Below, in pieces: positions 16,655-17,534 of a stretch of DNA of 35,188 nucleotides. The first letter of the stretch is position 1. Each line of letters opens with the position of its first letter. This DNA comes from Thermoplasmata archaeon (GTDB taxonomy: Archaea > Thermoplasmatota > Thermoplasmata > Thermoplasmatales > Thermoplasmataceae): the NCBI GenBank assembly GCA_021797025.1, contig JAKAAK010000003.1, positions 1-35,188 of the forward strand, given 5' to 3'. The notes below the pieces were generated by a model. It was not told the DNA's origin, searched no databases, and worked only from the letters and a program-made list of their open reading frames with translations. Position numbers and translations under genes: made by a program.

Positions 16655-17107
16655 ATGGCACGAATGCATACACGTAAGAGAGGAAAATCCGGATCAAGAA
16701 GAATTTCAATGGCTGAGAGACCTTCATGGATCCAGCTTTCAGATGATGAGATAAAGGAAGAGGTAGTAAAGTTAAAGAAGGATGGAATGTCAACCTCAAT
16801 GATAGGTATTAAACTGAGAGACCAGTATACAGTTCCAGGAGTTAGGCCTGTATTACATGAAAAGATGACAAAGGTACTGGAAGAAAATGGTGTAAAGGAT
16901 GAGGTACCTGAGGATTTGCAGTTCCTCATAAAGAGGTATAAAAATGTATCAAAGCATCTCCTTTTAAATAAAAAGGATATCAGCAATGAAAGGGGAAAAG
17001 AATTAATAATGGCAAAAATCCTGAGACTGGTAAGATACTATAAGCGTACAGGTCGTTTATCAAATGACTGGTCACTAAATAGAGTTCTGTCGACTACCCA
17101 CGACTAA
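16655..17107 (+). CDS. rps15: 30S ribosomal protein S15 (uS15) with an altered C-terminus
   Basis: The 150-aa protein begins MARMHTRKRGKSGSRR, as archaeal S15 (S13e) does, and continues through RPSWIQLSDDEI, the GMSTSMIGIKLRDQYTVPGV loop and LRLVRYYKRTGRLSNDW. It binds the central domain of 16S rRNA. Archaeal S15 usually continues after the DW pair with a short helix. Here the frame reads SLNRVLSTTHD and stops, and the last four codons (TTHD, 17093-17104) and stop codon belong to the left end of the mobile element. The native tail has therefore been lost or replaced, evidently without destroying an essential protein. The DHH nuclease downstream was probably once directly adjacent in the same operon. 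Confidence 0.95.
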   Translation: MARMHTRKRGKSGSRRISMAERPSWIQLSDDEIKEEVVKLKKDGMSTSMIGIKLRDQYTVPGVRPVLHEKMTKVLEENGVKDEVPEDLQFLIKRYKNVSKHLLLNKKDISNERGKELIMAKILRLVRYYKRTGRLSNDWSLNRVLSTTHD

Positions 17108-17534
17108 AGCCGTGGGCTTGTTCCGTGAGGGCAACGAAAGAGTTGATTAGGGGGCTTTAAAAATATGAAAGAAAAACAGAGGTTAGGAAAGAGAGATACA
17201 TACACACCCACTGGTGCTCCACAGGCCTGTGGCAACTGTGACCCGCTCCAGGATGGAGTATTAAACTGAGAGAGAATCCTCAGTGTGTTAGGTTTAAAAA
17301 ACTCCTCTAACAACCCCGGTGTGAACCTACAGTCAGGCATGACTGGACGGGATCTTATGGTTTCCGTTTTAAATATGCTAAACTAATCTTTAATGCCAGC
17401 AATGGCGATCGTTAAAAAAGAGGGAAAAAGATGGATGTAAATGTAGGAAAGGTAAATCTGAGAAAGTACGGCAAAGGATTGAAATTTAATATCCAATTCC
17501 ACCCACCCCTGAAGGGATAGGGATCCCTGGAGGT
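17093..17534 (+). mobile_element. Non-autonomous IS200/IS605-like element, copy 1
   Basis: The left end has the hairpin CCCACGACTAAAGCCGTGGG (17097-17116), the kind recognised by HUH (TnpA) transposases. The right end has a second hairpin in CCCACCCCTGAAGGGATAGGG (17502-17522), followed by CCCTGGAGGT. An inverted relative lies at 32749-33184. About 440 bp, it contains no intact transposase: a frame starting MKEKQRLGKRDTYT near 17165 stops after roughly 34 codons, and a short frame MDVNVGKVNLRKYGKG near the right end is conserved in both copies. It also has a TGTTAG/CTAACA stem. It sits exactly between the S15 coding region and the DHH gene. GGAGGT at 17529-17534, 6 bases before the DHH ATG, acts as Shine-Dalgarno. 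The family call rests on end hairpins and layout. Confidence 0.75.

What the first reader, a model, noticed from the sequence alone, without database searches (positions are those of the whole stretch)
17093..17534. Mobile element donating a ribosome-binding site to a core gene (copy 1)
The right end of the element carries CCTGGAGGT, and GGAGGT lies exactly six bases before the ATG of the DHH nuclease. The element has IS200/IS605-style hairpins at both ends but no transposase. In a lineage that mostly makes leaderless transcripts, an insertion that hands over a near-perfect Shine-Dalgarno sequence is a way to keep a downstream operon gene expressed. Element ends, spacing and start codon are seen directly; the effect on expression is inferred.
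Basis: partly seen in the sequence, partly recalled or inferred. Interest (0 to 1): 0.75.

Follow-up and report, generated by a model that had tools for sequence, protein, structure and literature searches.

The report
Transposon remnants as start-codon leaders
A small dead relative of the Cas9-ancestor transposon (IscB) sits exactly in front of the start codon of a DNA-repair-type gene, and its last bases look like the gene's ribosome-binding site; many sister copies sit the same way before core genes of these archaea.

Summary
The element is window 17089-17540 (452 bp), an iscB-deleted HEARO/IscB (OMEGA) element: its left half matches the IscB guide-RNA family RF02033 (below the curated score), and its right end is the last codons of iscB. 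In eight genus-mates the site is empty (for example ...GTTCT|ATGATA): the S15 stop TGA overlaps the DHH start ATG. The element lies exactly between CT and ATGA, without duplication or loss, and no empty site has GGAGG within 60 bases. The pattern is general: of 40 distinct right ends read in ten Thermoplasmatota genomes, 33 abut an ORF start (RpoB, PolB, IleRS, LeuRS, HisRS, GatE, Rad50, NADK and others), against about 16% expected for noncoding ATGA/GTGA sites. Thirty of these 33 pair with the 16S 3' end at -6 kcal/mol or better, against 3 of 27 ordinary window genes and 2 of 33 empty sites. Likely cause: the target motif ATGA is also a start codon or stop/start overlap. The left end can give the upstream gene a stop, the host TGA ends iscB, and the right end supplies a Shine-Dalgarno. 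That remnants are needed for translation is inferred and untested. The IscB family is known; I found no report of this placement in the papers I could search.

The parts
17089..17540 (+). iscB-deleted HEARO/IscB element (copy 1), 452 bp
   Evidence: Exact ends from 8 empty sites in genus-mates; HEARO match
17089..17330 (+). HEARO RNA (IscB omegaRNA scaffold), degenerate
   Evidence: RF02033, 64.4 bits, E 1.2e-12, below gathering score 83
17105..17107 (+). TAA in the left end that now ends ribosomal protein S15 (RVL* became RVLSTTHD*)
   Evidence: Sequence read against empty sites
17375..17408 (+). remnant of iscB 5' end (stop after three codons); right limit approximate
   Evidence: My comparison with the full copy L006
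17409..17540 (+). remnant of iscB 3' end / transposon right end; left limit approximate
   Evidence: 84% identity to the right end of the full-length copy G000:C37
17529..17534 (+). GGAGGT, Shine-Dalgarno-like; the genome's 16S 3' end reads GGATCACCTCC
17541..17544 (+). ATGA: native target motif and start codon of DHH; in empty sites also the S15 stop
   Evidence: 10 of 10 genus members start with ATGA
16655..17107 (+). ribosomal protein S15 gene
   Evidence: Pfam PF08069, PF00312
17541..18872 (+). DHH/DHHA1 phosphoesterase (RecJ-like)
   Evidence: Pfam PF01368, PF02272
32743..33188 (-). copy 2 of the element, same iscB deletion, 446 bp
   Evidence: (255 nt at 96%); empty in 8 of 10 genus members
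32749..32754 (-). GGGGGT SD-like motif of copy 2, six bases before ATG
31927..32742 (-). NAD kinase gene behind copy 2
   Evidence: Pfam PF01513, PF20143

Best explanation
The element is a non-autonomous remnant of an IscB (OMEGA/HEARO) transposon of the IS200/IS605 superfamily. Shown: at the four sites with empty orthologues the insertion is exactly 5' of a native ATGA start codon, and at 39 of 40 right ends read the next bases are ATGA or GTGA. At the S15-DHH overlap the left end gives S15 a new stop, a full-length iscB borrows its own stop from the host TGA, and the right end carries GGAGGT six bases before the ATG. The insertion therefore puts a strong Shine-Dalgarno before a start that was coupled to an upstream stop or close to a promoter. 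Inferred: ribosomes use that SD, the downstream core gene then depends on it, and so the remnant is locked in place while the rest of it decays.
For: HEARO match here; full copy in the same genome with HEARO 118 bits and RRXRR/HNH iscB. Exact empty sites: DHH in 8 of 10 genus members, NADK 8, HisS 9, IleS 8; ATGA in all 40 orthologues, 33 of them empty. 33 of 40 distinct right ends at ORF starts, p about 2e-20 against 15.8%; 29 of the 33 ORFs have a Pfam match, three of these under the curated cut-off. SD pairing: median -9.3 kcal/mol at the 33 starts, -1.5 at 27 window genes, -5.3 at 7 non-start right ends, -4.1 at 33 empty sites. In 20 remnants at starts the four SD G columns lost 0.02 bit on average against 13 other copies, other columns 0.40 (column permutation P 0.035). 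iscB is open to the host TGA in 6 of 7 full-size copies tested. In the frame of an overlapping upstream gene the left end gives a stop within 10 codons in 19 of 29 copies, against 5 and 7 in the other frames.
Against: No expression data. The SD is also strong in full-length copies, so it may serve transposition or the IscB C-terminus. Folding predicts the SD mostly paired (median unpaired probability 0.25; in copy 1 part of it lies in a predicted helix). Three of 33 start sites pair weakly (PurE -2.5, CoxG -4.9, ArgH -5.0), and one non-start site keeps strong pairing (-12.0). Two empty NADK sites pair at -9.3 and -6.0 without the element. Within G001 alone (7 remnants) several non-SD columns are as conserved as the SD. 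The P of 0.035 ignores relatedness. Bacterial ATGA-type right ends lack GGAGG, and 3 of 7 abut a gene start.
Confidence: 0.66

Rival explanations
1. Placement only: ATGA is the target motif, insertions inside genes are purged, and the G-rich right end is kept because transposition or the IscB C-terminus needs it; ribosomes make no special use of it.
For: Full-length copies carry the same right end, which is iscB coding sequence; the SD is predicted to be partly paired.
Against: Purging alone predicts about 16% of right ends at starts, not 33 of 40. Remnants that have lost most of iscB still keep GG-GG at starts, while SD pairing is weaker at the 7 non-start right ends (Mann-Whitney p 0.006). 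Seven bacterial ATGA-type right ends lack GGAGG, so the element type does not need it.
Confidence: 0.23
2. Insertion bias: in leaderless genes the start codon lies in the open transcription bubble, and the single-strand transposase TnpA inserts there; the start-codon excess comes from targeting rather than retention.
For: Full-length, probably younger copies are already enriched (7 of 9, p 6.6e-5). The HisS copy is absent from the 98%-identical orthologue of G007, so it is young or was lost there by exact excision. The IleS empty sites show a TATA-like stretch about 25 bases before the ATG (my reading).
Against: Two of the four resolved sites (DHH, HisS) read as stop/start overlaps inside operons, not transcription starts (frames read by eye). 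It does not explain the SD in remnants. It may act together with the best explanation.
Confidence: 0.3
3. The right end supplies a promoter (TATA-like TTTAATAT just before 17495) rather than, or besides, an SD.
For: The stretch lies about 50 bases before the ATG, so a start about 25 bases further on would give a short leader that still holds GGAGGT (my reading).
Against: The exact string is in the last 80 bases of only 3 of 40 right ends, and it is iscB coding sequence in full copies. Only this one string was tested.
Confidence: 0.1

Closest known systems
HEARO RNA / IscB OMEGA elements (Rfam RF02033; IS200/IS605 superfamily)
   Same: Same RNA family, same iscB gene in the full copies, guide side at the left flank, target motif at the right flank; insertion at ATGA or GTGA (that preference is recalled from the 2009 description of HEARO, paper not held)
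   Different: iscB mostly deleted here; right end carries a Shine-Dalgarno; placement at start codons of core genes
IsrB nickase of DtIsrB type
   Same: Target motif NTGA, TTGA or ATGA next to the target (PMC9581776, passages)
   Different: Our full copies keep an HNH domain, so they are IscB, not IsrB
MITEs of IS200/IS605 elements
   Same: Non-autonomous internal-deletion derivative with both ends kept and two copies of the same deletion
   Different: Fit to stop/start overlaps and an SD at the border
Translational coupling at ATGA overlaps (PMC6728339)
   Same: ATGA stop/start overlap with an SD inside the upstream gene, which helps re-initiation to a variable degree (section 9 read)
   Different: Here the upstream gene and its SD are parts of a transposon

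Membership tests
HEARO/IscB OMEGA element | HEARO RNA at the left end | tested here: met
   RF02033, E 1.2e-12 over the whole model, though 64.4 bits is below the gathering score of 83 and the gathering-score scan did not list it; 118 bits in the full copy
HEARO/IscB OMEGA element | iscB gene (RRXRR, HNH) in the element | tested here: not met
   Only both ends of the gene remain in the window copies; met in L006. So the window copies are deletion derivatives, not elements that could act alone
HEARO/IscB OMEGA element | ATGA/GTGA right beside the right end, exact insertion without target duplication | tested here: met
   Empty sites at four loci. 39 of 40 right ends have ATGA or GTGA, one ACGA; the motif helped me to place some right ends, so only the four empty sites are independent proof
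HEARO/IscB OMEGA element | RNA-guided cleavage of the empty site | not testable with these tools
   The same-genome IscB has Gly for the RuvC-I Asp, 9- and 11-residue deletions and Trp for an HNH Cys relative to L052, so it is probably inactive
IS200/IS605 superfamily | Y1 transposase TnpA acting on the ends | tested here: inconclusive
   None in the element; one Y1 match in the genome at C15 next to a tnpB; use in trans not shown
MITE | short, no protein gene, both ends kept, several copies | tested here: met
   452- and 446-bp copies with the same deletion; 14 matches to copy 1 in the genome, itself included

The most novel reading that the evidence does not exclude
A Cas9-ancestor transposon lineage has ends fitted to stop/start overlaps: the left end supplies the upstream stop, the host TGA is the stop of iscB, and the right end supplies the ribosome-binding site of the host gene. 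Insertion in front of essential genes is thus tolerated, and decayed copies have become required translation leaders of core genes (RNA polymerase, DNA polymerase, tRNA synthetases), fixed by the host's dependence on their SD.
Probability: 0.5. Interest if true: 0.86.

Novelty: new variant of a known kind. Interest (0 to 1): 0.76.

Why it matters
It would show how an RNA-guided transposon avoids harming its host: a target motif that equals the start codon, and ends that repair what the insertion breaks. The motif cannot drift because the host needs its start codon. It would also give a natural set of dozens of starts converted to SD-preceded ones, some with empty and filled orthologues, a direct test of what an SD is worth in an archaeon that mostly does without one.

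Tried and rejected
Rejected: a TnpB-type element (my first guess); the full copy has RRXRR, HNH and the HEARO RNA, so it is IscB. Rejected: the element brings its own ATG; all 40 orthologues at four sites, 33 of them empty, have ATGA. Considered: shared ends with the Y1/tnpB element as proof of mobilisation in trans; in the three G007 hairpin repeats read (L153-L155) the hairpin lies in another repeat, and no such hairpin was found in the 5 kb around the G000 tnpA/tnpB, so nothing is claimed. Left-flank consensus: none seen by eye. A genome-contig scan gave 4 loci. One search used a wrong reading frame for IscB and was redone.

Rows dropped before the 40-site tally: right end missing, off the contig or eroded (L003/L039, L030, L037, L046, L047, L050, L051, L083, L084; L032, L150 and L171 have eroded right ends although an ORF starts at or close to the break); other target motif or unclear right end (L081, L082, L085); G007 orthologues of G000 sites counted once. 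One search lists 44 matches in G007 and 17 in G001; many short ones were not read. From these two genomes 30 stretches were fetched, of which L161, L169, L172 and L173 were not read. The start/non-start label is mine: an ORF of 54 codons or more from the ATG, or open to the end of the locus. The window background used my own 29 gene calls and counts DHH and NADK among its 16 starts; without these two, p for 33 of 40 is 6e-22. PurE may start 11 codons further in. The S13 site is counted as a miss, but its start is 8 bases downstream. The SD-core pattern was chosen after seeing the data. Among the 13 'other copies' are two of unknown length (L142, L143). The 29 left ends include L047, whose left end is eroded.

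Not in print: searched; no title or abstract start in those listings, and no passage that I opened, describes start-codon placement or SD donation by IscB/HEARO elements. The two papers most likely to bear on it (HEARO 2009, ISC 2016) are not held.

Full report
Observation. At 17529-17534 the window reads GGAGGT, followed by ATCCTG and the ATG of a DHH/DHHA1 gene at 17541. A second copy lies on the minus strand, 33188-32743, with GGGGGT, GACCAG and then the ATG of an NAD-kinase gene.

What it is. In the same genome (G000) a full-length relative (G000:C37, L006 188-1630) has a HEARO RNA at 118 bits and an ORF with RRXRR and HNH domains: an IscB (OMEGA) element. The window copy has the HEARO RNA at 64.4 bits, E 1.2e-12, below the curated score of 83, followed by the first codons and the last roughly 130 bases of iscB. 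It is a deletion derivative. Copy 1 and copy 2 share the deletion and are 96% alike over 255 nt, while the orthologous DHH element in G007 is 1037 bp long, so the G000 copy was probably converted or replaced by a deleted copy. G007 is probably the MAG TL1-4.bin55 (Thermoplasmata): one contig has the same length, 120,423, as the named record.

Empty sites. The DHH gene was found in all 10 genus members. Eight lack the element and read ...G(T/C)(T/C)CT|ATGAT: the S15 stop TGA overlaps the DHH start ATG (frame read by eye). G000 and G007 are filled, with the element exactly between CT and ATGA. The filled S15 reads on into the left end and gains STTHD before a TAA at 17105-17107. For NADK 8 of 10 are empty, for HisS 9 of 10 (only G000 filled; G007, 98% identical protein, empty), for IleS 8 of 10. 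All 40 orthologues at the four sites start with ATGA. DHH and HisS read as stop/start overlaps. IleS has a TATA-like stretch about 25 bases before the ATG, as expected for a leaderless gene (my reading). None of the 33 empty sites has GGAGG within 60 bases; their pairing with the 16S 3' end is -4.1 to -5.0 at DHH, -5.6 to -9.3 at NADK, -3.7 to -4.9 at HisS, -0.8 to -3.9 at IleS (median -4.1; 2 of 33 at -6 or better, both NADK), against -9.4 to -13.3 at the seven filled sites.

Generality. HEARO matches occur in 9 of 81 genomes searched as relatives, own included, and in 9 of 292 of the phylum sample. I read right ends at 40 distinct sites in ten genomes, the nine and G162 (tally). All but one are followed by ATGA or GTGA (one ACGA); the motif helped to place some of them. 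At 33 of 40 the motif is the first codon of an ORF of 54 codons or more; 29 of the 33 have a Pfam match at E 1e-3 or better, three of these under the curated cut-off. They include RpoB, RpoK, PolB, IleRS, LeuRS, HisRS, GatE, CCA transferase, Rad50, NuoB, NAD kinase, ArgH and a GGPP synthase (some names are my reading of the Pfam family and sequence). Seven do not start such an ORF. In this window 16 of 663 ATGA/GTGA sites are gene starts and 85 more lie outside genes, so chance is 2.4% of all or 15.8% of permissible sites. The binomial p for 33 of 40 against 15.8% is about 2e-20, and for the nine full-length copies alone (7 of 9) 6.6e-5.

Shine-Dalgarno. A place in G000 that reads as the 16S rRNA 3' end has GGATCACCTCC (the pattern is recalled). 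Duplex energies of the 20 bases before the motif: median -9.3 at the 33 starts, -1.5 at 27 window genes, -5.3 at 7 non-start right ends; 30 of 33 starts but 3 of 27 window genes reach -6. Twenty-six right ends (orthologues and two non-starts among them) have a median of -10.35, shuffles of them near -5.8, lowest -7.55 in 200 (anti-SD with one extra U). SD core by a pattern chosen after seeing the data: 30 of 33 starts, 1 of 7 non-starts. Against the 13 other copies, 20 remnants at starts lost information in most columns (mean 0.40 bit) but hardly in the four SD G columns (0.02; P 0.035 by column permutation, relatedness ignored); G001 alone does not show it clearly. Predicted folding leaves the SD only partly free.

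Anatomy of the fit. In 6 of 7 full-size copies tested the iscB frame is open (462-483 codons) up to the TGA of the host ATGA, so iscB has no stop of its own and forms an ATGA overlap with the host gene; the seventh (L038) is closed and is also not at a start. In four partial or deleted copies (L043, L044, L049, L054) the right end reads CCTG|ATGA, so the same frame meets a stop (TG|A) one codon earlier. In 19 of 29 left ends the frame that an overlapping upstream gene would use meets a stop within 10 codons, against 5 and 7 in the other frames. The G000 iscB in front of hisS has lost the RuvC-I Asp, 9 and 11 residues by in-frame deletions and an HNH Cys, yet stays open to the overlap, as expected if only the reading frame still matters; that is one case.

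Bacteria. IscB relatives were found on 75 plasmid records; I fetched 9. Seven have ATGA beside what I read as the right end. Three of these start an annotated gene that overlaps the iscB stop by one base; four do not, though in one an annotated gene begins 8 bases further on. Their right ends lack GGAGG; pairing is -0.3 to -6.9. Four cyanobacterial copies (two plasmids, two Moorena genomes) have other ends. So ATGA targeting is wider than these archaea, and the SD was seen only in the archaeal elements.

Literature. IsrB target motif NTGA/TTGA/ATGA: PMC9581776 (passages). IscB with a 5' guide of about 16-17 nt and an NNRR motif for OgeuIscB: PMC9640706 (passages). Leaderless mRNAs in Thermoplasma and SD in re-initiation at overlaps: PMC7531240 (passages). 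Role of the SD in coupling, variable between gene pairs: PMC6728339 (passages and section 9). Few HEARO nucleases near TnpA: PMC9755519 (passages). That HEARO elements integrate at ATGA or GTGA is recalled from their 2009 description, which is not held.

Verdict. Shown: identity, exact ends, native ATGA, absence of GGAGG in empty sites, strong excess at start codons, strong SD pairing. Inferred: that ribosomes use the SD, that hosts depend on it, and that this keeps remnants in place. Whether the start-codon excess arises by targeting, by retention or both is open; the enrichment of full-length copies says that slow retention alone is not enough.

Noticed in passing
L006 471-1634: iscB in front of hisS lacks the RuvC-I Asp, the bridge-helix stretch and one HNH Cys through substitutions and in-frame deletions, yet stays open to the host ATGA.
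   Followed up: partly
L081, L085: Two IscB elements of one genome end ...GGTG|ATAAA or similar, a different target motif, and are not at an ATG start; in L085 the GTG at the border might serve as start of the next ORF (my reading).
   Followed up: no
L153, L154, L155: A repeat with the hairpin CCCACGACTAAAGCCGTGGGCTTCC; 23-bp exact matches to the element's left hairpin recur at more than a dozen places in G007 and the three read belong to it. It looks like another IS200/IS605-type end.
   Followed up: partly
window 17089-17540 and L054: The DHH element has a 452-bp form in G000 and a 1037-bp form in G007; the G000 form shares its deletion with the NADK copy, which suggests conversion between copies.
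   Followed up: partly
window 3003-9188: 2061-aa ORF with STT3/PMT-like N-terminus (weak) and three carboxypeptidase-regulatory-like stretches.
   Followed up: no
window 1006-1065 and 1461-1520: 60-nt direct repeat, 80% identical, 455 bp apart.
   Followed up: no
L160 (G001 C109): A remnant some 240 bases upstream of what reads as the ribosomal L3 gene, whose motif has become ACGA and whose SD is weak (-4.1).
   Followed up: no
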